DNA from: Hordeum vulgare subsp. vulgare
Taxonomy: Eukaryota; Streptophyta; Magnoliopsida; Poales; Poaceae
Length of the DNA stretch: 64,000 nucleotides
Assembly (NCBI RefSeq): GCF_904849725.1
Contig: NC_058518.1
Location: 215,028,741-215,092,740 of the forward strand
Reading direction: 5' to 3'
Shown: positions 6,801 through 41,724 of the stretch, in pieces
Layout of the letters: every line of letters begins with the position of its first letter
Numbering within the stretch: the stretch's first letter is position 1
Notes under the pieces: model-generated
What the model was told of the DNA's origin: nothing
Seen by the model: the letters and a program-made list of their open reading frames with translations, nothing else
Database searches by the model: none
Position numbers and translations under genes: made by a program

Positions 6801-7380
6801 TCCAGTAATTTTATGGGAATTTACTTAGATAATTTCCTTTGGAAACATCTCAAAAAGCTAAAACAGACATAAATGGTTTTCAGGGTTTTACTCAAATAAT
6901 ATTAATATAAAATAGGGTTGAAAATCTTATATGTGGAAAATATATGTCCTTCTCAGCTTCCATGAATTTACTCAGAATTTTCTAAGGCAAGAAAGCAATT
7001 TTCCTTGTGGTAATATCATTACTGGCCTTAGAAACAGACATAGATATAAAATAGGAAAATAATATTTTAAATCACCAATTAATGTTTTTAATGAATGAAT
7101 ATAATATTTGGATCAGATCACCAACTTTGGTTGGAAGTGCCCCAGTTTGCTTCATGAGCTAGTAGTGTATCCCAACATGATGAAGGTGATCTTGATATAA
7201 AGGAAAAAGGGGGTTTTGAAGAGAGCAAAATAATAAGTTTTCATGGGTTTGAGTCATCAAACAAGCAAGCATTCACTCAAACAAGGGCTGACATTGCACT
7301 CCCAACATTATTTGAAAAAGTTTTAACAAGCTCTGATTTTTGCAACATAAAATACTTGTGGTGAAAAACAGGGTGTGACA
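3811..7380 (-). mobile_element. D1, LTR-like insertion (solo LTR of a long-LTR family)
   Basis: The 3570-bp block begins TGTGGGGACCCTGAC and ends GGTGTGACA, so read on the minus strand it runs TGTCACACCC...GTCCCCACA with TG/CA ends. A related copy (D2) is at 52807-56919, which defines it as one unit. Both carry a GC-rich segment next to a minus-strand TATA box and an AT-rich half, and neither has a transposon gene. This fits a solo LTR of a family with very long LTRs (large-retrotransposon-derivative type); the family name is not certain. No target duplication is visible. Confidence 0.65.
5730..5742 (-). promoter_or_regulatory. TATA box of D1
   Basis: On the minus strand the sequence reads CCTATAAATAGGTC within GC-rich DNA. 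The same element is present at the same relative place in D2 (about 55643-55653). A conserved TATA motif in a coding-free block supports its reading as an LTR promoter in minus orientation. Confidence 0.5.
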
Positions 7381-7637
7381 TGTTTTGTATGCCTTTTATA
7401 TCTTTTTTGGGACTAACATATTAATTCAGTGCCAAGTGCCTGTTCCTATTTTAAACGGTGTCCAAGCGGAATAAAACTTCCAAAAAGATTTTTTTCGGAA
7501 CAGAAGATATGCACGAGACTTCAGAACCATGGCAGGGGCCACCTGGGGACCCCACAAGCCCCCTAGGCGTGGCCAGGGGGCCCGCGCCTAGCAGGCTTGT
7601 GGGCCCCCTATGGCTCGTCTGGCCTACCTCTTCCGCC

Positions 7638-7644
7638 TATAAAT
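7638..7644 (+). promoter_or_regulatory. TATA box of the G 5' LTR
   Basis: TATAAAT lies about 1.1 kb before the LTR end, and the same motif is at 22997-23003 in the 3' LTR. It would set the RNA start of the element. D1 lies upstream of it and has split U3. Confidence 0.5.
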
Positions 7645-8757
7645 TCAGAAAAATTCCAAAACTCTGAGAGAGATCCACGAAAATACTTTTCCGCCGCCGC
7701 AAGCTTCTGTCTCCGCAAGATCCCATCTGGGGCACGTTCTGGTGCCCTGCTGGACGGGGGGATTCGGATATGGAGGGCTTCTTCATCAACACCATGACCT
7801 CCCCGATGATGCGTGAGTAGTTCACCATAGACCTTCGGGTCCATAGCTAGTAGCTAGATGGCTTCTTCTCTCTCTTGGATATTCAATACGAAGTTCTCCA
7901 TGATCTTCATGGAGATCTATCCGTTGTAATCTTCTTTGCGGTGTGTTTGTCGAGATCCGATGAATTCTAGATTTATGATCAGATTATCGACGAATCTTAT
8001 TTGAGTTTCTTCTCATCTCTTATATGCATGATTTCATATCCTTGTAATTCTCTTAGAGTTGTGGGTTTTGTTCGGCCAACTTGATCTATGATTCTTGCAA
8101 TGGGAGAAGTGCTTGTTTTTGGGTTCATACCATGCGATGACCTCACTCAGTGATAGAAGGGGTACCCAGGCACGCATCGTGTTGTTGCCATCAAGGGTAA
8201 AAAGATGGGGTTTTCATCATTGGTTTGAGTTTATCCCTCTACATCATGTCATCTTGCTTAATGCGTTACTCTGTTCGTCATGAACTCAATACACTAGATG
8301 CATGCTGGATAGCGGTCGATGTGTGGAGTAATTGTAGTAGATGCCGAAAGTATCGGTCTACTTATCTCGGGCGTGATGCCTATATGTATGATCGTTGCCT
8401 TAGATATCGTCATGACTTTGTGCGGTTCTATCAATTGCTCGACAGTAATTTGTTCACCCACGGTATTATTTTCTATTTTGAGAGAAGCCTCTAGTGAACA
8501 CTATGGCCCCCGGGTCTACTTCACACCATATTTTCAGCTTTACACTTTTACTTCTTTGCACTTTCCACCTTCACATCTCACTTTGCAATCAATCTTGAAG
8601 GGATTGACAAACCCTTTATAGCGTTGGGTGCAAGCTCTTTTGTGTTTGCGCAGGTACTCTCGACTTGGCGCGATTATCCTACTGGATTTATACCTTAGTT
8701 CTTTCCTCTTCAAGGGAAAAACCAACGCAAGCTGAAGAGGCAGCATAAGGATTTCTG

Positions 8758-13039: not shown

Positions 13040-13044
13040 TGCTT
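13040..13044 (+). repeat. Left target-site duplication of element F (TGCTT)
   Basis: TGCTT immediately precedes the TGATGG start of the F 5' LTR; the identical 5 bp is at 21999-22003 directly after the 3' LTR. Element G sequence joins cleanly across the two. Confidence 0.95.
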
Positions 13045-13602
13045 TGATGGGGTTATAGTCCTAGGGTAGGTTCATAGGCCTGCCCTATGAGTCCTACCCA
13101 AGGACCACCCTTCATAAGGGATATGGCCTTTAGTCAGTTCCGGCTGAATTAAGGACTTCCCATCATCCAGTCGGTGAAAATTCCTCCATCATCCAGTCGG
13201 AGATGAACATTCGGAGCGTATCGAACTTACCGACTGGATTCCAGTCCGTGCATCGTAACCCCCCTGCAGGGCAACGGTCATACGTTTCCATGTACCTTTA
13301 TTAGCATTTAAGACATACGTTACCTGTAACGTAGGAATTTATTCGCCACTACTCCACCCCTGTGCACCGAACCGTTGTGAAGGGCAGAGCACTCTATATA
13401 AGCCGCCCTTCCCCACTGGTGCAGGGGTTAGCAATTCACTGTAATCTATATTCCACTCGACAACAAGCTCCCAAGAGCACTGAGACGTAGGGCTTTTACC
13501 TCCACCGTAGAGGGGCCTGAACTCATACAACCTCGCCGTAGTTAAGGCTCTGCCCATCCTTTCGTAATCTACACATCTACTGTCAGACTTATACCCACGA
13601 CA
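13045..13602 (+). repeat. 5' LTR of element F
   Basis: Starts TGATGGGGTTATAG and ends CCCACGACA, the same as 21441-21998, both 558 bp. A TATA box is at 13395-13402. It contains repeated ATCCAGTCGG motifs near 13160-13200. Confidence 0.95.
13395..13402 (+). promoter_or_regulatory. TATA box of the F 5' LTR
   Basis: TATATAAG with GC-rich DNA just downstream, conserved in the 3' LTR at about 21791-21798. It would start the genomic RNA roughly 170 bp before the LTR end. Confidence 0.6.
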
Positions 13603-13622
13603 GTTGGCGCCCACCTTGGGGC
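13603..13622 (+). promoter_or_regulatory. Primer-binding site of element F
   Basis: GTTGGCGCCCACCTTGGGGC directly follows the LTR terminal CA. The TTGGCGCCCACC...GGGGC form is the usual primer site of grass Tat-type elements. I cannot name the tRNA with certainty. Confidence 0.6.
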
Positions 13623-13669
13623 AGGCGTCTAAGCGACTTCCAGCGAGTTTGCGACTACATCTTTTCGTC

Positions 13670-15123
13670 ATGTCATCCGGTGGAGATTTGAGCATGGGTC
13701 ACGAGATCCTCTTCGGTGCTCTCTCCTTCGTCGTCGACGATTCGGCATGGCTTTGGGATGCCCCTCTCGAAGTCGAGGCACTCCCCAGTCGCGGGGCTAC
13801 GCACTTCCGTGCCAGCGCCCGCGTAATTCTTCTTCTCCAGCAATCGGCTCCGGTGTTGACTTACGCCGCAGTCGCGCGCCGCAACAAGCGGTCCCGCCGT
13901 TCGCGGCTCCAGCGTTGGGTGCAACAAGCCTAGGCGGGCCAGAACGCGTCCTCACAAGTGGCGGTCCTAGAGTCGGTTGTGGTTGCGCCGCCGTCCCAGC
14001 GCTCGGACTCAGTTCCGAGTGAGTTTCCTTCCGAGTACTTGGGTCGCGGGCCTGCGGCTGAAGTGCACATGACCAACTCCCATGAAAGTCCACGCCAAAC
14101 TGGCCGGAATGAGCACGAGGTCGGCGAAACATCCGGCGTTCGCCGTCAGCCCCGCCCTTCTGCCAGTCGGCACACTCGGCGGAGCAACGTGGAGGTGTTC
14201 CGCACACCCGTCCTCAACCTGGCTGCCGCCGCCAAGATAGCCGATTCCCTCGAACCGACTGATTCAGAGGCTGGCAGGTGGATCAAGAAAATCCGCGCCC
14301 TGCTGCACACGGCGCAGCAGCAAAATTCGGCGGTCTCCTAGTCGCACAACAGGATCCACAATAGTTCTGTTCATGCGAACACGCATCGGTCAGTTCACAG
14401 CCCCGGTTCTCATCAGCGACACAGGGGAGGCAGCCGTTCCACAAATCTCGAAGATCGTCGCCGTTCACGCACCCCTCCGCGGGGTGGGCCCTATGGGCCC
14501 CGACATCATGATGATCGGCGTTCAGTCGGTGACACTTACGATCCAAGGCCCGACGCAAGAGGGCATATCGCCCAGAGGAGGGTCGACAGGGGCCGAGCCC
14601 ACCGCGATGGTCACGATATGGACCGTCCGAGTGGAAGCAGGACCATCGTCTCTGGTCCCGAGTGTTTCAGTCGAGCCATCCGTTCGGCTGACATCCCTCC
14701 CAACTTCCGATTGGCAACGGGGATCAGCAAGTTTACAGGAGAATCCAAGCCAGAAACATGGTTGGACGACTACCGAGTGGCAGTTCAGATCGGAGGAGAC
14801 GACCACGTCGCCACGACGGCTCGGCAGGAGCGTGGCTGAAACAGTTGGCTCCCTCAAGCATCTACAGCTGGGCAGATCTGGCCCGAGTCTTCATCAGGAC
14901 CTTCGAAGGGACGTGCAAACGCCCTGCTGGCCTCGTGGAGCTCCAGCACTCTGTCCAGAAGCAAAATGAGCCCCTGCGCGATTTCATTCAGCGTTGGACG
15001 ACCCTCTACCACATGGTGGAGAACGTCACAGAGCACCAAGCTGTCTGCGCCTTCAAGACAGGCGTGCGGTACAGAGATTTGTACCTAAACTTCGGTCGAA
15101 CAGGCGACATCTCCATGAGCTAG
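13670..15123 (+). pseudogene. Gag of element F (two stops and one frameshift)
   Basis: The frame from an ATG at 13670 gives MSSGGDLSMGHEILFGALS, then TAG at 13931-13933. The same frame continues with VLNLAAAAKIADSLEPTDSE, a second TAG at 14339-14341, and an Arg/His-rich linker to ISKFTGESKPETWLDDYRVA. Near 14820 the frame shifts and the capsid core continues as AWLKQLAPSSIYSWADLARV and LRDFIQRWTTLYHMVENV up to TAG at 15121-15123. These are recognisable Retrotrans_gag features of Tat-lineage elements. Protease follows in the same second frame, so Gag and protease were one polyprotein. Confidence 0.8.
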
Positions 15124-16032
15124 ATGATGGAGATAGCGGCACGCTATGCAAATGGCGAAGAAGAGGACCGCATCCGTAGCGGCAAGCAGAAAGCAGTCGC
15201 CGATGGAGATGGGAACAACACTCGGAAGCAGAAGCAGAAAGCTCCGTTCACTCCGCAGGCAGAGGCCGCAACCGTTACCAATGCCAAGTTCAAGGGCAAG
15301 GGGAAAGCTCAGTTCACCCCCAAGAAGAAGCAGTTCGGAAACCCCATCCTGGACCAGCCATGTTCGATTCACACGAAGATGGATGAAGAGGGCAACGCCA
15401 TATATCTGAAGCATACCACTCGGCAATGTCGCCTCCTGATCCAGGGGTTCGGCAAAGGGCAACCAAGTGAAAAAGGCAATGAACAAGATGAGGAGGACAA
15501 GGAGGATCCATTCCCCCAAGTCCATGCAACACTGATGATTTTTGCTGACGTTGAGAGCAAGAGTCGACTAAAGCTGGTGAACAGGGAGGTGAACATGGCC
15601 ACGCCGACCAACCCCACGTTCCTCAAATGGTCTCAGACTGCGATCACCTTTGACCAGTCGGATCATCCAGCACACCTACCCACCCCAGGGAGGCAGGCTC
15701 TGGTCGTCGACCCGGTGGTGGAACGAGTCCGACTGCGCAAAGTCCTCATGGACGGCGGCAGTGGTTTGAACATCATGTACGCTGACACTCTCAAGGGGAT
15801 GGGCATTCCGATGTCCAAACTTAGAAAGAGCAGCATGCCGTTCCATGGAGTCGTCCCTAGACGAAAGGCCAAGTCACTCGGCCAGATCGCGTTGGACGTC
15901 GTCTTCGGCTCCGACAAGAACTTCCGCAAGGAAAAGTTGACGTTCGAGGTGGTGGACTTCCAGAGTGCGTACCACGCGATTCTGGGCCGCCCGGCGTATG
16001 CGCGTTTCATGGCCCATCCATGTTACGTGTAA
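15124..16032 (+). pseudogene. Gag C-terminus and protease of element F
   Basis: This 302-residue open frame continues the Gag frame after one stop. It has a Lys-rich basic region (about residues 20-80), a knuckle-like C-x-x-H...H-x-x-x-x-C (CSIHTKMDEE...KHTTRQC), an acidic stretch, and then a retropepsin (about residues 155-300) with AITFDQSDHPAHLPTPGRQA, the active site VLMDGGSGLNIMYADTLKGM and the flap/C-terminal motif AYHAILGRPAYARFM. D-G-G-S-G is a usual Tat-type active site, so the domain itself looks undamaged. The stop at 16030-16032 falls at the first unit of the tandem array, where pol would be expected. Confidence 0.82.
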
Positions 16033-16793
16033 CTTTCTCTGAGTCTGCACTAAACGTCGCACTCGGGGACTTAGCTGCGATCCAGAATCGCCTAAGTATT
16101 AACTTTCTCCGAGTGTGCACTAAACGTCGCACTAGGGGTCTTAGCTGCGATCCAGAATCGCCTAAGTATTAACTTTCTCCGAGTGTGCACTAAACGTCGC
16201 ACTCGGGGACTTAATTGCGATCCAGAATCGCCTAAGTATTAACTTTATCCGAGTGTGCACTAAATGTCGCACTCGGGGACTTAGCTGCGATCCAGAATCG
16301 CCTAAGTATTAACTTTCTCCGAGTGTGTACTAAACGTCGCACTCGGGGACTTAGCTGCAATCAAGAATCGTCTAAGTACAAAATTTCTCCGAGTGTGCAC
16401 TAAACGTTGCACTCGGGGACTTAGCTGCGATCAAGAATCGCCTAAGTACAAAATTTCTCCGAGTGTGAACTAAACGTCGCACTCGGGGACTTAGCTGCGA
16501 TCCAGAATCGCCTAAGTACAAAATTTCTCTGAGTGTGCACTAAACGTCGCACTCGGGGACTTAGCTGCGATCAAGAATCGCCTAAGTACCAACTTTCTCC
16601 GAGTGTGCACTAACCGTCGCACTCGGGGACTTAGCTGCGATCAAGAATCGCCTAAGTACTAACTTTCTCCGAGTGTGCACTAAACGTCGCACTCGGGGAC
16701 TTAGCTGCGATCAAGAATCGCCTAAGTACAAACTTTCTCCGAGTGTGCACTAAACGTCGCACTCGGGGACTTGTCTGCGATCAAGAATCGCCA
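16031..16793 (+). repeat. 70-bp tandem repeat array in element F, eleven units
   Basis: Units start at 16031, 16101, 16171, 16241, 16311, 16381, 16451, 16521, 16591, 16661 and 16731, exactly 70 bp apart; the last is cut short. Each unit contains CTCCGAGTGTGCACTAAACG, then ACTCGGGGACTTAGCTGCGA. Single-base variants are shared by runs of neighbouring units (TCCAG versus TCAAG; TAAGTATT versus TAAGTACA), showing local amplification. The centre ACTCGGGGACT resembles the element's own polypurine motif at 21428-21440. A diverged relic is at about 17037-17085. Confidence 0.95.
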
Positions 16794-16841
16794 GATAGAA
16801 AGCTTCCTTCGAGTGTATCTCACAGATCCACTCGGAGGCTT
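16794..16841 (+). other. Spacer between the two tandem arrays
   Basis: CCTTCGAGTGTATC...CAGATCCACTCGGAG recurs at about 17089-17120, each time directly before a ribosomal-protein-like unit, so it is part of a larger composite repeat. Confidence 0.6.
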
Positions 16842-17009
16842 AGCAGACCCTCATTGAGGCTCATGTAGATGTCAAGACAACTGACAATTAGATGAGTAGC
16901 AGACCCTCATTGAGGCTCATGTAGATGTCAAGACAACTGACAATTACATGCGTAGCAGAACCTCATTGAGGCTCATGTAGATGTCAAGACAACTGACAAT
17001 TACATGAGT
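16842..17009 (+). repeat. 56-bp tandem repeat derived from a ribosomal protein S3a exon, three units
   Basis: Units start at 16842, 16898 and 16954. Read from the CAG codon each encodes [17 protein letters not shown] or a near match, the conserved segment of eukaryotic 40S ribosomal protein S3a. Unit 1 has TAG in place of the Tyr codon and unit 3 has Asn for Thr. The 56-bp period is not a multiple of three, so the array cannot be read as one frame. A fourth, longer copy follows at 17127. Confidence 0.8.
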
Positions 17010-17126
17010 AACTACTCGCTCCGAGTATGACCTGACAGTCGCACTCGAAGACTTAGCCGCGATCACGAATCACCTAAGTACTCTATTGCCTTCGAGTGTA
17101 TCCTCCAGATCCACTCGGAGATTCAA

Positions 17127-17206
17127 CAGACCCTCAGTGAGGCTCATGCAGATGTCAAGACAACTGACAATTACATGCTCCGCCTGTTTACCATTGGCTT
17201 CACCAA
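17127..17206 (+). pseudogene. Fragment of 40S ribosomal protein S3a gene captured in element F
   Basis: The frame from CAG at 17127 reads [17 protein letters not shown] and goes on [16 protein letters not shown]. Human and plant RPS3a have the same run (I/LEAHVDVKTTD-Y-LR-F-GFTKKR), so about 26 residues are clearly shared. Similarity fades after TKKR, and the open frame then runs unrelated to a stop near 17310. Nothing upstream of the QTL codon resembles the protein, so the captured piece may begin at an exon edge. Too small to function. Recognised from memory of the family; a search would settle the extent. Confidence 0.78.
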
Positions 17207-17418
17207 GAAACGCCAAACAAAAACCACGAGCCAAAATCGTGTCCACAACTCTTTGGCAAAAGAAGAGAAAAAGATTCGATTCAAATTCAAAGTTCGCCTA
17301 AAGATAGTCGGTTAGGTGTAGATCAAGCTTATCCACACCGAACCACGAATGTGACGGCCAACAGCAGTGGCCCAAGTTTCATACAACCAACACTCGGCAT
17401 ACCGAGGTAAAAGTTTTC

Positions 17419-18282
17419 TTAAACGTCGTCAGGACTGGCACTAGGACTGGCAGGCTCCACGAAAGTGTCGACGTCGATCCCGTCTGCGATGCGAGTGGTG
17501 CTCTCAAGGAAGGTCTCCATGAAATCTTCGAATCGAAGCTTTTTGGTGTTGGCGACTTGCAACGCCTTCAGCTTCTCTTCGCGAGCCTCCTTGCAGTGCA
17601 CTCGGACTAGCGACAGAGCGACATCCGCACCACAGCGAGCTGCAGACTTCTTCCACACTGGCACTCGGTTCGGGACCTCCTCCAGCCGAGTCATCAAGCC
17701 TTCCATCTCTTGCCGAGACTCGTTTTCAGGCCAAAGCTCCTTGTCGATTCGGCTGACGACCTCTCTCAATCGACCGATGAAAGGTCCCACTTTGCGCAGG
17801 TGAATGTGCGCTCGGAGCATATCTCGATTGGCGTCCTCGCCGAGTGGAACGTTCAGAAGAATCGACCGCTCCACGTCAGCCGCTTCAGCCTCAACGTCCA
17901 TGCAAAAATCTGCAAAGACAGGACGAGAAAACAATAAGCGCAGAATGAAATACACAGTCCACAAGCACTCGGAAAAACAGAACTTACCACCGAGAAGCGC
18001 TATCATCTTCCTTGCCCAGTCACTGACGTAATTCTCCTGTACTATGCACCGCCTGTTCAACACCTGCATCTGTCCCATCAGCTCGGTCCTTTGTTTCCCC
18101 ATTTTCTTCACTTCAGCCGCCAATGCCTTGTTTGCCTCACGGGACTCCTCCAAGGACTTTTCTTGTTCAGCCAGAACATCCTTCAGACCAGCCAACGCAA
18201 CCATTGATGCATCCAGTTCCGCAGCAAACTGAACCTTTTCAGCCCTCAGAGTCTCGTAAGCTGATCCCATCTCGCAAGTCTT
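17419..18282 (-). pseudogene. Coiled-coil C-terminal exons of the antisense ORF
   Basis: Exon five (18282-17988) encodes a heptad-rich helix with YETLRAEKVQFAAELDASMV and LAEQEKSLEESREANKALAA. A 78-bp intron (17987-17910; GTAAGTT...TTTGCAG) separates it from exon six (17909-17419), which reads FCMDVEAEAADVERSILL and ends with PSASPDDV at a TAA (17419-17421). The intron is accidentally open in frame, which produces one long 289-codon frame. Long coiled coils are usual at the C-terminus of this protein type. Confidence 0.7.
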
Positions 18283-18766
18283 CTGCAAGTCAGTGCCAAG
18301 AGACGATCAGACAAATTCAACAAGGACAACAATAAAGACTCGAAGTTCTTCAGACCCCTGCCGACGCAAGCAGTCGACAGCGGTCTCGGGGACTACACCT
18401 AGTGGGTTCACTAAGAGTGACCCCACTGGCATGAAGCTCGAACAAGTCCGCCCTATTGAGATACATGACAACAAACAAGCCTATGAGGTTACTACTACCC
18501 GACCTGAGTAAAATTACTCTCGGGGACTAATCCAGTAGGTGCACTCGGAGTGCCACCACCGGTAACATTCGAACAGATTAGTTTTGATCTGATCAAGTCA
18601 AAGAAAATATATATAAAGACAACTGCCGGTGCAAGCACTCGACAGAAGTCTCGGGGACTACACCCACTAGGTTCACTAAGAGTGAACCCACTTCAAAAGA
18701 ATCATACTGTATCCGAGTACATTACTTAAACACCCAGTGGGTAACAAGAGGAAAGTAAATACTTAC

Positions 18767-19330
18767 TAGCCCAGTTACTCGGATATCGTCCCGGAGTTCC
18801 AAGCTTCGCTTGTACACTGACGCGATGGAGTCGTACGCTCTCTTGGCATCTCCCGCCATCAACTCTTCCTACACCATGGCCCCCTTGGCAGCTCCCACCT
18901 GATCTTCCGGGAGGCGCTGGACGTTGTACTGGACAGTCGACGGACCTGGCATCAAAGGAGACTCCTTGGGCATCCCAAGTCCTGCTCCAGTCGGTTCAGC
19001 AGCGATAAGCGCCTTTTCAGTCGATGGCATGATCTCAGTCGACGGCGCGTCCATGGCGGGAGTAGTAACCGGTGGAACAGCCTCAAGGACAGGCACCGCA
19101 GCTTGCTCGGATCTCCCCTGGTCGCCCTCCTCCACATAGATCACCTCTGAGGGAAACCCGACCGAACGACGCGAGTCACAGGAAAAAGGCAAGACCAAAG
19201 ACAGAATTCGTGATGCAATAATGTAAGCTCTCGGAATTGCCACGACGCACCTGGCTGGGATGTGAAAACATTGTCCATGTCCATGGGATCGTCCCCCTGG
19301 CGTGGCGGAGAGGTGGAAGAGGTAGCAGCT
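18767..19330 (-). pseudogene. Exons three and four of the antisense ORF
   Basis: Exon three (19330-19251) ends with DNVFTSQP and joins exon four (19146-18767) across a 104-bp GT...AG intron to give EVIYVEEGDQGRSEQ in frame. Exon four is Pro/Ala/Thr-rich and has a TAG near 18869-18871, after which the frame continues LMAGDAKRAYDSIASVYKRS to a GTAAGT donor at 18766. The following intron is 484 bp. The single stop is the main damage in this part. Confidence 0.65.
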
Positions 19331-19409
19331 CTGTCGAGTAAAATTCATTCGACCAATAAGCATGAGTTCAATCGAATACTGGAAGAAGCTGGAAGAACAA
19401 TGCACTTAC

Positions 19410-19831
19410 ATTGAGGTGACGGGAACTTTGACCCTCATCCGCGGCAAAGCCTTCCGAGGCTTAGATCCACTCGGTTTGGCCACCTTAGAGGGCTGGCCCG
19501 CAGGCTCAGCAGAAGAGTCCCTGGTCCTCTTTGTGCTCCGAGCACTCGGAACCGCCGGAACGGCTGGCGAGCCGCTCGGAACCACATGAGCAGCTGGCGG
19601 GGCACTCGAGGATGCTGGAGGGGCCGACGGAGCCACGGGTTCATGACGGCGTTTAGTTCGAGGATCTGGCGGTGGGGGTGGCGAGTTCTGTTCCTCATTT
19701 TCCTCCTCTTCCTCTTCGAACTCCTGCTCTGTCTCCCCACTGTCGGAGACATACTCGACGCTCTCCACGCTACCTTCCTCTTCCTCGGCCGGATACCCGT
19801 TCGAGACAGGAGAAAACCAGTTAGTCCACGC
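19410..19831 (-). pseudogene. Exon two of the antisense ORF, acidic and proline-rich
   Basis: The exon reads AWTNWFSPVSNGYPAEEEE, a Glu-rich tract (about residues 18-48), PPPPPD and a Pro/Ala/Ser-rich low-complexity region, then a basic tail (KALPRMRVKVPV). It is fully open. The acceptor is at 19832 and the donor (GTAAGTG) at 19409. Such low-complexity linkers sit between the conserved core and the coiled coil in this protein type. Confidence 0.65.
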
Positions 19832-19928
19832 CTGCACGAGATACAGTCGACAATATCAGACTTTAGACAGTGATTCAAGAAAGCGATAAATCTAAGACAA
19901 TTGTGTGCACTCGACAAGTTATACTCGC

Positions 19929-20935
19929 TTCATTCGGAGGAGGGTTTTCCGCACGGAAGGCCTTCACTCGCCGGGCTCCTCTAGGGTTATCGCAGGCGCC
20001 TGTGATGTTGAGGACCCACGACGCCACCATCTAGCCGGTCACGCACTCGACGTTAGTCCGAGTGGAGTCCTCAGGCCCCGTGTAGTGCCACATGGCGTGG
20101 TGTCGAGCTTGCAGGGGCTGGATACGCCGACCCAGAAAAACCTCCAGCAAATTATGCCAGTGACTCCCCTTCAGATGACCTCTACAAGCGCATCGACCAG
20201 AGGCTGGATCTGGATCTTCTCCGCCTTCGTGAGCGCGAGCTGCCTAGGCGGAGCCGGTCGGTCTAAGCTAAAAGGAGGCAGTCCAGTTGTAGCATTCGGG
20301 CAAGCAACGTCCTGGCAGTAGAACCATGTCGACTGCCAGTTCCTAACAAATTCACACAACTGAAGAGCGGGATAGTTACTTTTACTTTTATTTTGGAAGC
20401 CTAAGCCTCCGCAGAGCTGGAGGAGGTGAGTTTTGTCATCCGACTGGTTAAGTCGTTTGATGGTTTGAGATCTAGCAGAGAAGATGTGTTTGAAAAGCCC
20501 CCAATGGGGAGGACAGCCGATGAAACACTCGCACAGCACGACGAAGGCAGAGAGATGAGCTATTGCGTTGGGAGGAAAATGGTGGAGCTGCACCTCGAAG
20601 TGGTTCATTATACATTTGAAGAAGCCAGAGAGATGAGCTATTGCGTTGAGAGAAGCCTCGGTGCACGTGGTTGAGCAGCAAGACGCGCTCCCCCTCATGG
20701 GGCGCCGGCTCGGTCTCGCCTTCCGCCGGCCACCTCCACGTCTTGTGCGCGATCATGCCATGCTCCACCAACTCCAGCAAGTCCCCCTCAATCACCATGG
20801 AGGGGAGGAAATCCCCCTGGATCCAACCCGCCGGTAGCGCACGCTGCCGCCGCTGAGCAGGAGCCGTCGCCTTCCCCTTCTTCTTCCGCGCCTCTAACTT
20901 GCTAGTCTCCCCCCTTTGTCATGGAGGAGGCTGCA
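19929..20935 (-). pseudogene. Conserved core exon of the antisense ORF (Transposase_28-like)
   Basis: Reading minus: a Lys-rich start near 20935, MVIEGDLLELVEHGMIAHKT, ERVLLLNHVHRGFS, then in another frame FPPNAIAHLSAFVVLCECFI, HWGLFKHIFSARSQT, HLLQLCGGLGFQNKSKSNYP, VRNWQSTWFYCQDV and LTKAEKIQIQPLVDALVE. Further on RRIQPLQARHHAMWHYTGPE is visible around 20130-20070. This order is that of the plant putative Gypsy-type transposon domain. At least two frameshifts and a stop break it. A local duplication of NAIAHLS with 78-bp spacing replaces part of the N-terminal half. Confidence 0.72.
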
Positions 20936-21427
20936 GATCCGCGAGGGAGAAGGAGAAGGAAAGAGCTTGGGATGCGCAGGGGATGGCGAGAGAAGCGGGG
21001 CAAGTGCAAGTTATCCGGCGAGTGTAACAAAAAACCCTCGCCGTAGAGAATTAAATAAGGTTCCGACTGGGTCACTAGCAGGTGGCCCCGAAATCTTATC
21101 CCCCGACCGGTTGTTGCGATATTAGTGGAGAAGATGAAGGCGCAGAAATCGAGGCGGTAGATACTACTCGATTACGATGTCGGCATCCCCGCTGAGCGTG
21201 CGGCAACCAAAATTTGGAGATCCCGGAAAATTCGCCGCTATTAGTTGACTGGTCACGTCAAAAGATACCACAGAAGCACTCGGTCCCTAACGGTTCGTTT
21301 CGCAAATACATCCACTCGGATCACTGGACAAGAGGATAAAATGGATCGAGGCAAACAACTCCAAAGTCGCATCTGTACCAGTCGGATCCGTACTCCAAGC
21401 ATCGCTTCATCGTTCCAACCCCAATCC
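20936..21427. other. Region between the antisense ORF and the F polypurine tract
   Basis: No coding domain. It should hold the promoter of the antisense gene; on the minus strand TTATTTAATT near 21050 is a possible TATA-like element upstream of the ORF start. Short TCGG-rich segments resemble those elsewhere in F. Confidence 0.4.
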
Positions 21428-21440
21428 ATTCGGGGACTAA
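21428..21440 (+). promoter_or_regulatory. Polypurine tract region of element F
   Basis: ATTCGGGGACTAA lies directly before the 3' LTR. CGGGGACT is repeated in every 70-bp unit and near 18385, 18520 and 18650. Confidence 0.6.
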
Positions 21441-21998
21441 TGATGGGGTTATAGTCCTAGGGTAGGGTCATAGGCCTGCCCTATGAGTCCTACCCAAGGA
21501 CCACCCTTCATAAGGGATAAGGCCTTTAGTCAGTTCCGACTGAATCAAGGACTTCCCATCATCCAATCGGTGACGATTCCTCCATCATCCAGTCGGAGTT
21601 GAGCATTCGGAGCATATCGAACTTACCGACTGGATTCCACTCCGTGCATCGTAACCCCCCTGGAGCGCAACGGTCATACGTTTCCATGTACCTTTATTAG
21701 CATTTAAGACATACGTTACCTGTAACGTAGGCATTTATTCGCCACTACTCCACCCCTGTGCACCGAACTGTTGTGAAGGGTAGCACACTCTATATAAGCC
21801 GCCCTTCCCCACTGGTGCAGGGGTTAGCAATTCACTGTAATCTATATTCCACTCGACAACAAGCTCCCAAGAGCACTGAGACGTAGGGCTTTTACCTCCA
21901 CCGTAGAGGGGCCTGAACTCATACTACCTCGCCGTAGCTAAGGCTCTGCCCATCCTTTCGTACCCTACACATCTACTGTCAGACTTATACCCACGACA
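21441..21998 (+). repeat. 3' LTR of element F
   Basis: 558 bp, colinear with 13045-13602 without gaps, differing at about 21 positions counted by eye. Followed by the TGCTT duplication at 21999-22003. Confidence 0.95.
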
Positions 21999-22003
21999 TG
22001 CTT

Positions 22004-22674: not shown

Positions 22675-24130
22675 TGATACGTCTCCAACGTAACTATAAT
22701 TTTTAATGGTTCCATGCTATTATCTTGTCAAACTTTGGATGTTTTGTATGGCTTTTATATCTTTTTTGGGACTAACTTATTAACTCAGTGCCAAGTGCCA
22801 GTTCCTGTTTTTTTCGTCTTTTTGACCCCTTTCAGAGGAGGATTTTAAACGGTGTCCAAATGGAATAAAACTTCCGAAAAGATTTTTTCCGGAACAGAAG
22901 ATACGCACGAGACTAGAGAACCAAGGAGCGTCCAGGGGGCCCGCGCCTAGCAGGCTTGTGGCCCCCCTGTGGCTCGTCTGCCGTACCTCTTCCACCTATA
23001 AATTCAGAAAATTTCCAAAACTACGAGAGAGATCCACGAAAATAATTTTCCGTCGCCGCAAGCTTCAATCTCCGCAAGATCCCATCTGGGGCACGTTCTG
23101 GTGCCTTGCCGGAGGGGGGATTCGGATACGAAGGGCTTCTTCATCAACACCATGACCTCTCCGATGATGCGTGAGTAGTTCACCATACACCTTAGCTAGA
23201 TGGCTTCTTCTCTCTCTTGAATCTTCAATACAAAGTTCTCCATGATCTTCATGGAGATCTATCCGACGTAATCTTCTTTGCGGTGTATTTGTCGAGATCC
23301 GATGAATTGTGGATTTATGATCAGATTATCTATGAATCTTATTTGAGTTACTTATGTTCTCTTATATGCATGGTTTCATATCCTTGTAATTCTCTTCGAG
23401 TTGTGGGTTTTGTTTGGCCAACTTGATATATGATTCTTGCAATGGGAGAAGTGGTTGGTTTTGGGTTCATACCGTATAGTGACCTCACGAAGTGAGAGAA
23501 GGGGTATCGAGGTGCACATCGTGTTGTTGCCATCAAGGGTAAAAAGATGGGGTTTTCATCATTGGTTTGAGTTTATCCCTCTACATCGTGTCATCTTGCT
23601 TAAGGCGTTACTCTGTTCGTCATGAACTCAATACACTAGATGCATGCTGGATAGCGGTCGATGTGTGGAGTAATAGTAGTAGATGCAGAAAGTATCAGTC
23701 TACTTGTATCAGACGTGATGCCTATATGTATGATCATTGCCTTAGATATCGTCATGACTTTGTGCACTTCTATCAATTGCTCGACAGTAATTTGTTTACC
23801 CATCGTATTATTTGCTATTTTGAGAGAAGCCTCTAGTGAACACAATGGCCCCCGGGTCTACTTCACACCATATTTTCAGCCATACACTTTTACTTCGTTG
23901 CACTTTCCACCTTTAGATCTCACTTTACAATCAATCTTGAAGGGATTGAAAACCCCTTTATAGCGTTGGGTTCAAGCTCTTTTGTGTTTGCATAGGTACT
24001 CTCGACTTGGCGCGATTCTCCTACTGGATTGATACCTTGGTTCTCAAACTGAGGGAAATACTTACTGCTCCTGTGCTGCATCACCCTTTCCTCTTCACGA
24101 GAAAAACCAACGCAAGGTCAAGAGGCAGTA
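22675..24130 (+). repeat. 3' LTR of element G
   Basis: Starts TGATACGTCTCC and aligns with the split 5' LTR. It preserves the 35-bp stretch missing where D1 sits and a segment near 24040-24095 missing from the 5' copy. TATA motif at 22997-23003. The exact right end is unclear: about 16 bases separate GGCAGTA from the GCGAT target repeat, so the terminal CA is mutated or the end is rearranged. Confidence 0.85.
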
Positions 24131-29840: not shown

Positions 29841-30202
29841 TGTCGGTGTCAACACCGACGGATCTTGGGTAGTGGGTCCTAAGTCGTGAACCTTGGATCG
29901 ATGGGTTACACGGGACGAAGGAGACAAAGTTCTTCCCACATTTGGGCCCTCTTGAGGATGTAAACCCCTACGTCCTGCTTTATTATATTTATGTGCATGA
30001 GAATTGCAGAGTTGATTTACCTCGAGAACGTATGAGCTAAAACCCTAGATGAGTCAACATGCCTATACAGTTGAAACACTCTGGTTTATATAGACACCAG
30101 GGGTTCCTAGGGTTGCATAAAACCGACCTCCAGTCAGGGACAGATGCGCCAATGTAGACGACTTAACTTGGATGACACGCCAGTCTTCGGAGCTTTCCTT
30201 CC
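29841..30202 (-). repeat. 5' LTR of element B, truncated by element H
   Basis: Begins TGTCGGTGTCAACACCGACG (plus reading) and follows A's LTR closely, with a TATA box at 30085-30092. It stops abruptly at 30202 where H's LTR starts. The missing 110-120 bp of U3 is not found on the far side of H. Confidence 0.75.
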
Positions 30203-31591
30203 TGAAAGTGCGTTATATCGACAAGAGGGGGGTGAATAGGCGATTTTCAGAATTTCATCAATGAGGAAATTCCTTGTGAGGAAAGTCCTCAACGGTCAAC
30301 TTAGTGGAGCGGAAATAGTGCACAACCAGGAGTGCAAAACAACTACAACAAAGTACTCAATGAAGTTTATGAGATTCGTCTTGCACAGTTTGCAAGTACA
30401 GAGTAAGCAGGTGAAGATTAACTCAAGTGAAGAATTTGAGGTTGAGGAAATTCAGAGAATGTCTTCAGACAAATTCTTCAAATAGTACATATGAATGTCT
30501 TCAACATACAATGAGCAAATGAAAGAGCTAAAGAAATAGAACCGTAGCTCGATGAAGGCAGTTGTTGATGACTCAGTTCCAACTGTTGTGATTGTTGTAC
30601 GTATGGTTCGGAGCGGCTTGGTATTGAAACCAAAAGGACACATAGTCCCAGGCCACACAGTCCCTACCGTATTCTCCTTGAGCTAAGGACACACGGTCCT
30701 CGCGCAACACTCGTGGTAAGTCTTCAGGGCAGACATCCAAATCCTCACAAACTCGGTCACCCGATGATCCAGAATTGACTCGTGGATGCTCTAGACCATG
30801 ACGCCTAACCGTCTGGAGGATGCACAATCCTCAAAGGTAACAGGCTTTAGTTCCACACATGAACAACTTCTTCAGTGATGCTCAATCACTTGGTTTTTGG
30901 TTTAGGGTCTGGTGTTTGGGGTATTTCCTCACCTAATGATTTTATCTCAAAGACTCTGAGGAATTGGGTTACTCTAAATGACAAGTGTCAGTTTCTCTCG
31001 GAGCAGCCCACCCACGAGTGGTTGTGGGGGGCGGCTATTTATAGCCTGGGAGCATCCCGGCATGATTTGACATAAATGCCCTTAAATAATGTGATCGTTG
31101 GGTTGATAAGATCAGTGAGGTGGGGCATGTCACGACACTGGTCGGAACTTTCAACTGTGTAGGTCCTCATGTCTTACATATTCCTCACTTTGCGGCTTTG
31201 GTAGATTTAGGCTTGGGTTGAGCATCATGAGGAAAATCATTCCGAAGTTTTACCTCGACCCCCTTTAACAGTACGTCGTTTTTATGACTCAAGTGTAAAG
31301 AAAATGAAGCATAAAGAGTAAATATTCACTCTTCAAAGTCTTCAGAGTGTTGTATTCATGACACGCCGAATTCCTCATCTTCAATATCTTCATGAGGAAT
31401 ATCAATTTCTTTGCGACCAATGTCTTCAAGGAAGGACCAAAGTCTTCACATTTTTAGGGGTCGATATTCACCGGTAAACTCAAACTCCTCAGCGACTTAT
31501 AGATCATGTGTACACTCACAAACATATTAGTCTCTAAACCTATAAGCCTTCAATCCACCGAAATCACTAAGGGGCACTAGATGCACTTACA
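30203..31591 (-). repeat. 3' LTR of Copia element H (Maximus/SIRE type)
   Basis: 1389 bp; read minus it starts TGTAAGTGCATCTAGTGCCC after the polypurine tract and ends CGATATAACGCACTTTCA. These ends match the Triticeae Maximus-type LTR. The shorter middle LTR at 41272-41724 shares both ends but lacks about 936 bp of the interior. No gene inside. Confidence 0.8.
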
Positions 31592-31606
31592 ATCTCCCCC
31601 TTTTTG
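31592..31606 (-). promoter_or_regulatory. Polypurine tract of element H
   Basis: On the minus strand CAAAAAGGGGGAGATT directly precedes the LTR, the usual SIRE/Maximus plus-strand primer. A second copy is next to the middle LTR at about 41725-41740. Confidence 0.75.
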
Positions 31607-32108
31607 GTGGTTGTTGACAATTAGGTTAAGTTTTCAACGGGGGTAATAATATGGAATGTAAGTACAGAGTTTGAGGAATTTGAAGTTAAGATACAGAGAA
31701 ACTCCCCCTAAAGATGTGCATATTTTGAGGAATTTGCTTTGAACAGCAGATGCACAGTGATGATTTATTTCATGGAGCTCCCCCCCTGTATCTTACAATT
31801 CATGCATCCATTTGACATATAGTATGAGGAATTAGAAATGCATGCTGAAAAATGGTGTCTGATGAATTTCAACATTCTTGCATTAATAAACTAGAGGAAT
31901 AAACATGTGAGGAAGAACGTTCAAAAGAGTGAGAACACCATCGGGATTAAGTTACAACTCACTACATCAAAAACTTCAGTAGAACCAGGATTTGGTAACT
32001 TAATAAAGTTTATAAGCCCATAATGTATGTCGCTTGAAGACTAACTCTCAGATTTCTCCCCCTTTGTCATCAAGTGACGAAAAGGAACAAAGCTGAGGAC
32101 TAACGCCC
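31607..32108 (-). other. Non-coding stretch between the env-like ORF and polypurine tract of H
   Basis: AT-rich, no frame of note. Contains several copies of GAGGAATTTG. The equivalent in H2 is 41740-42210. Confidence 0.6.
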
Positions 32109-35004
32109 TTAAAGAAATTCACTTCTTCTTCGATCAAGAGGCATGAGCCTCCTTGGAGACATGCTTCTTCCTTGGGCCAGTTGCAGTGTCCTTTGGTTCT
32201 TCATCTGATTCGGCAGTGCGAAATGAACAAAATGAACTATCCTCAAAGTCAGGAACTGTAAGTGGCTTGAATTTCTTCTTTGGAGGCCACGACCAGTCAA
32301 AGTCTTGAGTAAGTTCCATTTCCTCAAGTTCATCACGATGCTTTAGGTGAGCCAAAGTGGCCAGAGTACGATCAAAAACCTCACGAAGATAGTAGTAATT
32401 TTTATTCACTTCATTCTAAGTATCATTGAGGGTTTTCACAATGGCACAAAACTGTCGTTTCACCCACTTGTGATCGCGATCGACTTTCTGGTGAAGACTG
32501 AGGAGAAGCTATCTGTTAGTCATCACCCGAGGGGCATTTGGGCTTGGAGGTTCTTGAGTAGTAGTATCATGATATGAAGAATATAATTAGCCTTCCTAAA
32601 TTGGCCATAAAGGGGCCGATTTCCTTCATCACTCACGGACTTTCCTTTGCCTTCAACTGGCTCAAAAGTTTGCTTGGTGACTTTGATAGGAAGTAGATAT
32701 CCAAGGTGATTCTGAATGTCAACTTTATAGTTGATGTCGGATTTGTTCCTGATGAATCTCATAATCCATGGTGCATAAATCTTCAGCTCATACGGAGTCA
32801 AAGCGTTGTCAGCCAAAGTCCTCAAGAAGAAATCATGAATATTCATAGGAATGCCATGTATGACGTTGAATAGGATATTCTTCATGATGCCTACAACGTG
32901 TTCTTCATTGTCATGCCCCTTGATTGGAGGAAAGGAATAGGACAGGATGCGATAGACGGTTCTGGTCTTATACTTCAGATCCTTTACAATGAATCTAGTC
33001 CTTGGAGGTTGTCCTTGAGCCAAAGGCTTCATGAGGACTTCCATGAGCTTGTTCGGAAGTTCTCGTTGATCATACATTTTGACTGCGTCCGCTGTGGGAG
33101 TTGACATTGGGAGAGCTTGAAGCAATTCAGTGGATGGAGATTTGTAATGCGTGTGCTGAGTCATCCAGTCCAATACCCTTGTGGTGACGTCTTTTGGGTC
33201 GCCTGAGATATGCACTGTGGCATAGAATTGAAGAATTATGTCCGTGTTCTAATCACTGATATGTGTGCACAAAGGTTGTAACCCAGCTTCATGAAGAACA
33301 TTGAGGAATCGAGCGAAGCAAGGTATTTCCTCCATATCAAAATGAGGAATATGGGTGTGATGAAATATCTTCCGTCTTCCACAGAGCACAGAGGCATAAT
33401 AGTTGAGCTGATTTGTGGTCGAGAATTTTCTATGCCTGATGCGAAGTTTGTCGTAGGGGTTTGCACCTGTGAAGTAATGACATTCATCAAGGAATGCTTC
33501 CTTATGAAAGGTTGATTTGGCTTCGGCTAAAGATTGTGTTGCTTTGCATCTTCAGGAGTTGTGGCCACCACAACGGTAGTTTCAAGATTCACCAAAACAA
33601 GTGCAGTTTCAGCATTTGGGGTAGAAGAATTTTCATCAGCTTGAGCATTTTCATCATCTTGAGGAATTTGCCGACTTGAGGAAGCAGTTGCAGTTTTTGA
33701 TCCTGCATTTTCTTCAGCTCATGCAGCTGATTCATGCAGCTTGAGCATTTTCATCATCTTGAGGAATTTCTTCAGCAGCTGGATCTTCATCTTCATCTTC
33801 CTCAGGTAGTTCAACAGTGTAGCTTGGGTGAGTGTTTGTCTGCCGTTGTGAAACAGCCATTCCGATATAGTATTAATCAATTGTAGCAGAGTAGCTTTGA
33901 CGAAATTCACTTCGACCCCTTTACGATCCGTGTAAAGACTTGTATACTTGTCAGTGAGGGATTTTAGTTCAGCCTCAGTGGAAACGAGTTTTTCAGACGA
34001 CAAATTGAGGGATTTTAGTTCAGCCCTCGCTTTCTTGGCTTGTTGTTCCTTCCATTTGGCTTCATTGATGAAAGTGGCAACCATGTGGCTTACACCAGGG
34101 GAAGCGTTAAATCATCAATAGGAGTATTTGGATCTTCATACTAGAGGTCTATGAAGTCCATAAATACCTTCGGATCCACTCCAAGAGGAATGGAGCTGCC
34201 GGTGGCTTGTGCAACTATTTCTTGTTTGTTCTTGATAATTGCTTGAAGTGTTTTATCATAAAATTCTTCACTCCCTTCTGATGCAGAAGGAATGTTGACG
34301 ATTTTGCTTGGACTGGGTCTGGTACCTCTACCAGCAGTCATCTTAGTCTTCAAAAGACTTGGTAAAGGTTTTGAAGCAGAACCAATAGCAGATGGCACAG
34401 AGTAACTAGGTTGTTCAGATTAAATCTTACTAAGCTAATTTTGCAGAGGAGGTGAAGACTTTGCTTCAGTTGAAGAATTTGAAGTCGTTGCAACTTTCTG
34501 AGGAAACTGCTCTTTTGACGCAGCAGTTGAAGCTTTTGGTTTCCTCAGGAGAGCCTTCTTCTCAGGAATTTCAGTGGCAGAGGCCTCAGCAGCTGAAGAA
34601 GTGGCAGTAGTGGGTGCAGCAACAGATTCCTCATTGAATTTTTTCACAATAGCTTATGCCTTTTTGCAACTTAGACACGTATTTGTCTTTCTCATCAGGG
34701 TAATCCTCAATAGTGGCTACACTTGAGGGATGAGATGCTTGTTGATCTCCCTGTGTCAAGCTTTTCTAGGGAGGTTTGAGGCCAACTTCTTTGCATATTT
34801 TGGAGTCACATATATGTACTCCTTCCACTCTTTTTCCCACCTGTGCTCAAACTTTTGAAGCCTAATCTTGTAGTTCGACGTGGCTTCTTTACCATGAATA
34901 TCCTCATCAAGTGTACAGTAGTCAGCATATAATTCTTCGGAGATCTCGAAAGCAGTATTCTGCTCCAACTTATTGCCACCTTTCTCTTTCTGGTCTTCTT
35001 CCAT
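32109..35004 (-). pseudogene. Env-like extra ORF (ORF3) of Copia element H, broken
   Basis: Minus frames in order: 35004-34756 (MEEDQKEKGGNKLEQNTAFE; EKEWKEYIYVTPKYAKKL), 34647-34435 (Ala/Ser/Thr-rich), 34398-34141 (VDPKVFMDFIDL), 34084-33719 (coiled coil), 33215-32523 (DVTTRVLDWMTQHTHYK; LPNKLMEVLMKPLAQGQPP; LTPYELKIYAPWIMRFIRNK) and 32409-32134 (REVFDRTLATLAHL; FDWSWPPKKKFKPL). Position 3' of pol and this protein type identify the extra ORF of Maximus/SIRE elements, called env-like although no fusion function is shown. Segment order differs partly from one continuous frame, with five or more breaks. No convincing signal peptide or membrane helix is visible. Confidence 0.68.
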
Positions 35005-41204: not shown

Positions 41205-41271
41205 AACTAAAACTCCAAGTGGTTAAACCAAAATCACACAGAACAAGGGAGTACCTTGTTGTGATACAAAC
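41205..41271 (-). promoter_or_regulatory. Leader and primer-site region of element H
   Basis: On the minus strand the LTR end (ATACTTTCA) is followed by GTTTGTATCACAACAAGG, a degraded form of the initiator-Met tRNA primer site usual in Copia elements. Confidence 0.5.
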
Positions 41272-41724
41272 TGAAAGTATGTTATATTGACTAGAGGGGG
41301 GTAAATAGGAGATTTTTAGAATTTCATCACTGAGGAAATTCCTTGTGAGGAAAGTCCTCAATGATGAACTTAGTGCAGCAGAAATAGCTCAGGATGAGGA
41401 GTGCAAAATGACTACAACAAAGTACTCGATAAAGTTTTTGACATTCCGTTTGCACAGTTCGCAAGTACAAAGTAAGCAGGTGAAGATTAACTCAAGTGAA
41501 GAATTAGAGGTTTAGGAAATTCAGAGAAAGTCTTCAAACAAATTCTTTAATCAGTACAGATGAATGTCTTCAACATACAATGAGAAATGAAAGAGTTGAA
41601 GAAATACAATCAGCAAACTCCTGAGCGACTTATAGAGCGTGTGTACACTCACAAACATATTAGTCTCTTGACCTATAAGTCTTCAATCCACCAAAATAAC
41701 TAAGGGGCACTAGATGCACATACA
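41272..41724 (-). repeat. Middle LTR of the H/H2 Copia arrangement, internally deleted
   Basis: 453 bp with the same termini as 30203-31591 but missing about 936 bp between positions equivalent to about 30535 and 31480. On its left is H's primer site and gag, as for a 5' LTR. On its right is a polypurine tract, as for a 3' LTR. Confidence 0.8.

What the first reader, a model, noticed from the sequence alone, without database searches (positions are those of the whole stretch)
16842..17206. A ribosomal protein S3a fragment captured by a retrotransposon and turned into a tandem repeat
Inside element F, four stretches encode the conserved RPS3a segment [17 protein letters not shown]. One (17127) extends through LRLF-IGFTKK. 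Three others are 56-bp tandem units. A host coding sequence was therefore copied into the element and partly amplified as satellite-like DNA. The amplified units (IEAHVDV) are closer to the plant protein than the long copy (SEAHADV), so they may preserve the older state. Host gene capture by Tat-type LTR elements followed by tandem amplification is not something I know to be described for this gene.
Basis: partly seen in the sequence, partly recalled or inferred. Interest (0 to 1): 0.88.

Follow-up and report, generated by a model that had tools for sequence, protein, structure and literature searches.

The report
Ribosomal gene piece carried by retrotransposon
A barley jumping element picked up a piece of about 90 letters from a ribosomal protein gene, still has close relatives without it, and has spread and multiplied that piece thousands of times, so a gene capture can be read with its before and after states in one genome.

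Summary
Window 16844-17217 holds one 91-bp and three truncated 51-bp pieces of the host RPS3a (eS1) gene, the truncated ones as 56-bp tandem units, inside an LTR retrotransposon (13045-21998, TSD TGCTT, LTR K 0.041). All 30 loci fetched by flank alone carry it; exact patterns find 6666 units and 1143 3' junctions (reversed controls 0). A sister group lacks it: 204 'empty' sites with native repeat sequence. Between shared ends, 10 native bases were replaced by 88 host bases, with 2 nt of microhomology at one junction and an 11-of-13 match at the other, in sense orientation: best read as template switching onto RPS3a mRNA during reverse transcription. A flank tree orders empty, early filled, later filled and window class, and the piece departs from the host gene in the same order. 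Later jumps in the 70-bp array made 171-bp and 56-bp repeats. Protein-level selection is not evident. Capture and Tat-type 3' arrays are each known; a capture fixed family-wide and built into the array, with the empty state preserved, is a new variant.

The parts
13040..13044 (.). target-site duplication TGCTT, left
13045..13602 (+). 5' LTR of the element (558 bp)
14692..15123 (+). gag reading frame (PF03732 Retrotrans_gag, E 1.1e-11)
15124..16032 (+). continuation of the gag side; no Pfam hit; aligns with the relative L072 up to 16034
16033..16034 (+). junction of a polymerase deletion: RT and integrase DNA present in L071 and L072, and integrase DNA upstream of the array in L002-L008, are missing here
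16030..16792 (+). 70-bp tandem array (10.9 copies)
16803..16843 (+). partial, diverged 70-bp unit that abuts the first RPS3a piece
16844..16894 (+). truncated RPS3a copy 1 (51-bp core; in-frame stop)
16900..16950 (+). truncated RPS3a copy 2
16956..17006 (+). truncated RPS3a copy 3
16841..17010 (+). 56-bp x 3 tandem array formed by the truncated copies
17010..17126 (+). one diverged 70-bp unit plus a partial unit between truncated and long copies; with a 52-bp copy this makes the 171-bp higher-order repeat seen in relatives
17127..17217 (+). long RPS3a copy (91 bp; from nt 49 of a 186-bp internal exon of the 4H RPS3a gene)
17218..17418 (+). unique 3' flank shared by filled and empty family members
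17419..18306 (-). antisense extra ORF (295 codons stop to stop, no Pfam hit)
18869..19855 (-). two further antisense open frames, no Pfam hit
20171..20752 (-). antisense frame with Transposase_28 (PF04195, E 6.1e-17)
21441..21998 (+). 3' LTR; K to the 5' LTR 0.0405 (11 transitions, 11 transversions in 558)
21999..22003 (.). target-site duplication TGCTT, right

Best explanation
A Tat/Retand-type Ty3-gypsy retrotransposon of this genome captured a stretch of one exon of the 4H-type RPS3a gene at the 3' edge of its 70-bp tandem array: 10 native bases were replaced by 88 host bases, between a shared GC and a shared AAAC. Most likely it happened during reverse transcription: the enzyme, copying element RNA from its 3' side, left it at AAAC inside GAGTCGCCTAAAC, paired with GAGACGCCCAAAC of an RPS3a mRNA, copied it back to the GC, and returned to the element there. 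The filled element then multiplied to well over a thousand copies. Jumps between array units gave a truncated 51-52 nt copy flanked by 70-bp units (171-bp repeat) and, in the window's class, a collapsed 56-bp repeat. The piece is carried along as a passenger. Shown: donor, shared junctions, empty and filled states, copy numbers, the order of changes, no protein-level selection on the long copies of the window's class. Inferred: RNA template rather than DNA, the enzyme jumps, and the root of the tree.
For: Donor and exon. Family-wide presence: long copy in 30 of 30 loci fetched by flank alone, out of 40 scored; element-specific 27-mer 6666 hits, long and truncated copies together, reversed control 0; 25-mer 3' junction 1143; host-exact 3' junction 165; 56-bp junction 1729. 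Empty sites: 4 of 5 candidates read and 204 matches to the empty pattern, control 0. Junctions: the 13-mer at the empty 3' junction has its best match in the whole 4-kb 4H gene exactly at the captured end (11/13 for three of the four empty copies, 12/13 for L089; next best 9/13; a match of 11 or more anywhere in 11 of 300 shuffled genes); the 1H gene reaches only 9/13. Order: the flank-only tree places empty, then L092 (its piece is L087, host-like at positions 83 and 89), then two class-2 copies with host state at 83, then the rest with class 1; support 100, 100 and 96 at the three deepest splits, 38-90 further in. Neutrality: 11 of 51 private changes synonymous, 0.22 against 0.23 expected, in 29 long copies. 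Sense orientation in 30 of 30. No match to RPS3a outside that exon in 65 of 65 filled loci, some of them overlapping.
Against: The piece crosses no exon junction, so an mRNA template is not proven. The 5' junction shares only 2 nt. Rooting on the empty copies is an assumption: midpoint rooting put the root between class 1 and class 2, with the empties inside class 2. My root rests on the host-rooted decay series, on the native repeat sequence at empty sites, and on one early filled copy and two empty flanks only. Distances are not clock-like (empty-early 0.084, class 1-class 2 about 0.18). Selection counts are mixed: in class-2 long copies 12 of 28 private changes are synonymous (more than the 0.23 expected, but that sample was picked by its match to the RPS3a profile), and in the 103 truncated class-1 copies only 20 of 195 are (less than the 0.22 expected, inflated by a few bases shared by many copies).
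Confidence: 0.82

Rival explanations
1. Capture at DNA level: a break in an integrated element was patched with RPS3a sequence by microhomology-mediated repair or gene conversion, and that copy later became a master.
For: Single-exon origin fits it equally well; microhomologies suit it too.
Against: Needs a randomly repaired copy to become a successful master; sense orientation is only a coin toss under this model; no intron or other RPS3a gene sequence in 65 of 65 filled loci, some overlapping.
Confidence: 0.15
2. The empty sites are secondary losses: an ancestral filled element lost the piece by recombination with an array unit.
For: The same near-homology could serve a reverse jump; midpoint rooting would place the empties inside class 2.
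Against: Empty sites keep the special last unit and run natively into the flank, so loss would need two matched jumps restoring repeat-like sequence; the filled copy nearest the empties is host-like at positions 83 and 89.
Confidence: 0.08
3. The piece is kept by selection for a use to the element (peptide, RNA structure, or silencing of host RPS3a).
For: The long copy differs less among 30 copies (3.5%) than the adjacent flank (5.8%); present in 30 of 30 flank-sampled loci; excess of synonymous changes in the biased class-2 sample.
Against: With CG/CHG-type sites set aside its divergence (2.7%) lies within the range of the 91-bp windows beside it (2.1-5.4% up to 18309); the long copies of the flank-sampled class have a neutral share of synonymous changes; the window's truncated copies lie in three frames, one with a stop.
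Confidence: 0.07

Closest known systems
Hypervariable 3' UTR tandem repeats of Tat/Ogre elements as a source of satellites (Macas 2009, as cited in passages of PMC7004042)
   Same: Tandem repeats with varying monomers in the 3' untranslated region of Tat elements; amplification ascribed to illegitimate recombination or abnormal strand transfer
   Different: Here part of the monomer is a host coding exon with a known donor, and long satellite arrays were not shown
Gene transduction by LTR retrotransposons (maize Bs1; rice and sorghum surveys, as cited in PMC7264820)
   Same: Sense-oriented host gene sequence inside an LTR element
   Different: [quoted passage not shown] here 30 of 30 flank-sampled copies have it, with 1143 exact junctions, and an empty sister group persists
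Abnormal template switching in Triticeae (Veju, BARE-2; passages of PMC13317346)
   Same: Switch between co-packaged RNAs builds chimeric elements in wheat and barley
   Different: Those gained unknown or other-element sequence; here a cellular ribosomal protein gene is the donor
Gmr9/GmOgre interleaved minisatellites of soybean (PMC3305785, abstract)
   Same: Polymorphic interleaved repeats between coding region and LTR in a family of thousands of copies
   Different: The abstract mentions no host gene origin

Membership tests
Tat lineage, Retand/Ogre-like (Neumann 2019, PMC6317226) | second RNase H (aRH) between RH and integrase | tested here: met
   Relative L072: RT (PF00078), RT_RNaseH, then RVT_3 (PF13456, E 6.7e-24), then integrase (PF00665). 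That RVT_3 is the aRH domain is my reading. Not present in the window copy, whose pol is deleted.
Tat lineage, Retand/Ogre-like | extra ORF between pol and 3' LTR, antisense, Transposase_28 as in Retand (PMC7264820) | tested here: met
   PF04195 E 6.1e-17 at 20171-20752 minus strand
Tat lineage, Retand/Ogre-like | tandem repeats in the 3' untranslated region | tested here: met
   70-bp array about 0.4 kb after the end of the integrase frame in L072 and at 16030-16792 in the window
Tat lineage, Retand/Ogre-like | position in a polymerase tree; PBS type | not tested
   no reference set of plant polymerases was at hand
LTR retrotransposon gene transduction | host gene sequence with identifiable donor in the same genome | tested here: met
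   4H RPS3a exon
LTR retrotransposon gene transduction | related elements without the insert | tested here: met
   204 matches to the empty-site pattern, four read
LTR retrotransposon gene transduction | spliced exon junction showing an mRNA template | tested here: inconclusive
   piece lies within one 186-bp exon
Satellite DNA | long head-to-tail arrays independent of the element | tested here: inconclusive
   2-6 truncated units in 29 of 30 flank-sampled loci; genome-wide listings were cut at 100 places

The most novel reading that the evidence does not exclude
The captured exon piece is used: antisense transcription through the extra ORF runs on into thousands of RPS3a units and yields RPS3a-matching small RNAs, so that the element family can dampen a host ribosomal protein, or shelters behind sequence the host cannot silence without harming itself.
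Probability: 0.06. Interest if true: 0.88.

Novelty: new variant of a known kind. Interest (0 to 1): 0.6.

Why it matters
In captures known from one or a few copies, breakpoints and direction are hard to read. Here donor, empty site, host-exact early junctions and later amplified forms coexist in one assembly, so the switch points can be read to within the shared bases, and the growth of array repeats from a non-repeat seed can be followed step by step. It also warns annotators: thousands of RPS3a-like pieces attract a ribosomal protein label (three public predicted proteins already carry it).

Tried and rejected
Splice-bounded capture: rejected, the ends lie inside exon sequence (exon limits read from AG/GT and the family profile). 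Strong conservation of the piece: an apparent effect between classes came at least partly from choosing class 2 by its RPS3a match; in the flank-sampled set it fades. A pattern meant to find flank copies without the piece found none; it was badly designed, because the native sequence also has AAA there. Instead I compared by eye the 27 flank matches listed on C1 up to 64.9 Mb with the unit listing; five had no unit listed nearby, were read, and four of them were empty. Twelve stretches near 12 of 150 Transposase_28 hits, meant as distant relatives, had no DNA similarity to the element (0 of 12). Dating the capture by clock was dropped because distances are not clock-like; only the window insertion is dated (1.56 My at a recalled rate of 1.3e-8). 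In some searches and 84 rows were dropped: L001, L053, L055 as duplicates of other rows, L020 for a rearranged flank. One of 30 long copies was dropped for a gap. The base loss in the host's CCC run is scored as a change at position 89, though it is more likely a one-base deletion. Literature, listings only: no report of this capture among the papers listed in searches (3 papers; 0; 0; 20 of 1059 listed; 1; 2; 4), nor in 26, 32 and 53; open-licence papers only. PMC5078923, checked by passage, speaks of a mitochondrial genome.

Full report
What is there. The window lies in a 4.21-Gb genome at C1:215028741-215092740. Morex V3 as I recall them; no call names the species. At a recalled rate of 1.3e-8 per site per year that is about 1.6 My. 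It holds a gag frame (PF03732), then a 70-bp x 10.9 array at 16030-16792, then the RPS3a pieces, then antisense frames including Transposase_28.

The RPS3a pieces. Three truncated copies (16844-16894, 16900-16950, 16956-17006) form a 56-bp tandem, and a long copy lies at 17127-17217. The peptide of the long copy matches eS1 of solved ribosomes (best E 8.6e-11). The genome's own RPS3a genes lie at C1:186234829-186236716 (+) and C4:545535582-545536270 (-) as far as the profile matched. All four pieces match one internal exon of 186 bp, from its nt 49 on, and best the 4H gene: 82 of 91 identical for the long copy, E 2e-31, against 79 of 96 for the 1H gene. No splice site is touched.

How widespread. 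A search with the RPS3a family profile gave 4110 first-look candidates; of the 150 scored, 7 rows are exons of the two genes and 143 are fragments starting at profile position 94-97. To avoid choosing copies by the piece itself I sampled by the antisense frame at 17520-18300: 30 of 30 fetched loci (of 40 scored; the window is one) carry the long copy, and 29 of 30 carry two to six truncated ones. Patterns give 6666 units carrying the element-specific base, 1143 copies of one 25-mer 3' junction and 1729 56-bp junctions; the reversed patterns give 0. So the piece is a fixed part of a large family.

Classes. Class 1 (window, L001-L008, L041-L070) has truncated units 55-57 bp apart in 29 of the 30 flank-sampled loci. 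Class 2 (L015-L038, 24 loci picked by their RPS3a match, hence biased) has mostly 52-bp copies spaced about 171 bp: one 70-bp unit, a partial unit and the RPS3a piece; one (L029) has none. Diagnostic bases are shared between long and truncated copies within a class (position 30 in class 1, position 45 in class 2), which points to homogenisation inside elements.

The window copy is a deletion derivative. Class-2 L072 and class-1 L071 have reverse transcriptase and integrase DNA (L072 also RNase H and RVT_3 by Pfam); the seven other class-1 loci L002-L008 have integrase-side DNA upstream of the array; in L072 the array starts about 0.4 kb after the integrase frame. The window copy passes from 16033 straight into the array. 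RT, RNase H, a second RNase H, integrase, in that order, plus antisense Transposase_28, is the arrangement that PMC6317226 (passages) and PMC7264820 (two of three parts read) give for Retand-like Tat elements.

Before and after. Of 1803 matches to a 21-mer of the 3' flank I compared the 27 listed on C1 up to 64.9 Mb with the unit listing, picked the five with no unit nearby and read 401 bases of each. Four have no RPS3a: the last 70-bp-like unit runs on as CTTAGC-YGAGTCGCCY-AAAC into the flank. One (L087) has the long copy ending in the host's own AAGAGACGCCCAAAC. The empty pattern occurs 204 times, the host-exact filled junction 165 times, reversed controls 0. At the 3' junction GAGTCGCCTAAAC (element) faces GAGACGCCCAAAC (4H gene), 11 of 13 (12 of 13 in L089), the best match anywhere in the 4-kb gene (next 9 of 13; 11 of 300 shuffled genes reach 11 somewhere); at the 5' junction only GC is shared. 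Between the shared GC and AAAC, 10 native bases were replaced by 88 host bases.

Order of events. A tree of about 560 bp of 3' flank, the piece excluded, of 61 copies (2 empty, 1 early filled, 23 class 2, 35 class 1) places the early filled copy between empties and class 2, and class 1 within class 2, with support 100, 100 and 96 at the deepest splits and 38-90 further in. Independently, the piece departs from the host gene in that order: early copy host-like at positions 83 and 89; 5 of 24 class-2 copies host-like at 83; the other 19 and 29 of 29 class-1 copies changed there; class 1 with the further I-to-S and V-to-A changes in 28 and 27 of 29. Two of those five are the class-2 copies that split off first in the tree; the other three lie further in. 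Rooting on the empties is an assumption; midpoint rooting of an earlier tree disagreed.

Function. In 29 long copies of class 1, 11 of 51 private changes are synonymous (0.22; expected 0.23). Class-2 long copies, a biased sample, show 12 of 28; truncated class-1 copies 20 of 195, where a few bases are shared by many copies. I see no consistent protein-level selection. The piece is a little less diverged than its neighbours, within their range once CG/CHG-type sites are set aside. I therefore read it as a passenger.

Mechanism. Sense orientation (30 of 30), shared bases at both ends, a near-match of 13 bases at the side where the enzyme would leave the element, and the replacement of a short native stretch fit two template switches during minus-strand synthesis, element RNA to RPS3a mRNA and back. 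Neither step is observed, and DNA repair remains possible; 65 of 65 filled loci tested show no RPS3a gene sequence outside the exon. The 171-bp and 56-bp repeats fit the abnormal strand transfers already proposed for Tat 3' repeats (PMC7004042, passages).

Standing. [quoted passage not shown] Tat 3' arrays as satellite seeds are known. A host exon fixed in a family of over a thousand copies, worked into the array, with its empty state preserved, I did not find in print (searches listed under Tried and rejected).

Noticed in passing
window 16033-16034: Element F has lost RT and integrase DNA that L071 and L072 keep; gag-side sequence is fused to the 70-bp array.
   Followed up: yes
window 7380-8150 and 22739-23492: A second pair of direct repeats (about 15.36 kb apart) encloses element F, suggesting that F is nested in another LTR element.
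   Followed up: no
window 30202-33736 and 41271-43828: A third set of long direct repeats, mostly about 10.1 kb apart and 86-90% alike, perhaps old LTRs or a duplicated element.
   Followed up: no
P0001-P0003 (ENA contigs of 524-624 nt): Three public predicted proteins look like frames of this element family with a PF01015 ribosomal S3Ae label; one cluster has 12 member sequences. Likely misannotation.
   Followed up: partly
L020: A filled copy whose 3' flank breaks off after about window position 17294 and meets LTR sequence in the opposite orientation: a rearranged or nested copy.
   Followed up: no
G000, Transposase_28 search: The antisense Transposase_28 domain gives 29958 first-look candidates; 150 of 150 scored passed the cut-off, and 12 stretches fetched near such hits had no DNA similarity to element F, suggesting many Tat-like families in this genome.
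   Followed up: partly
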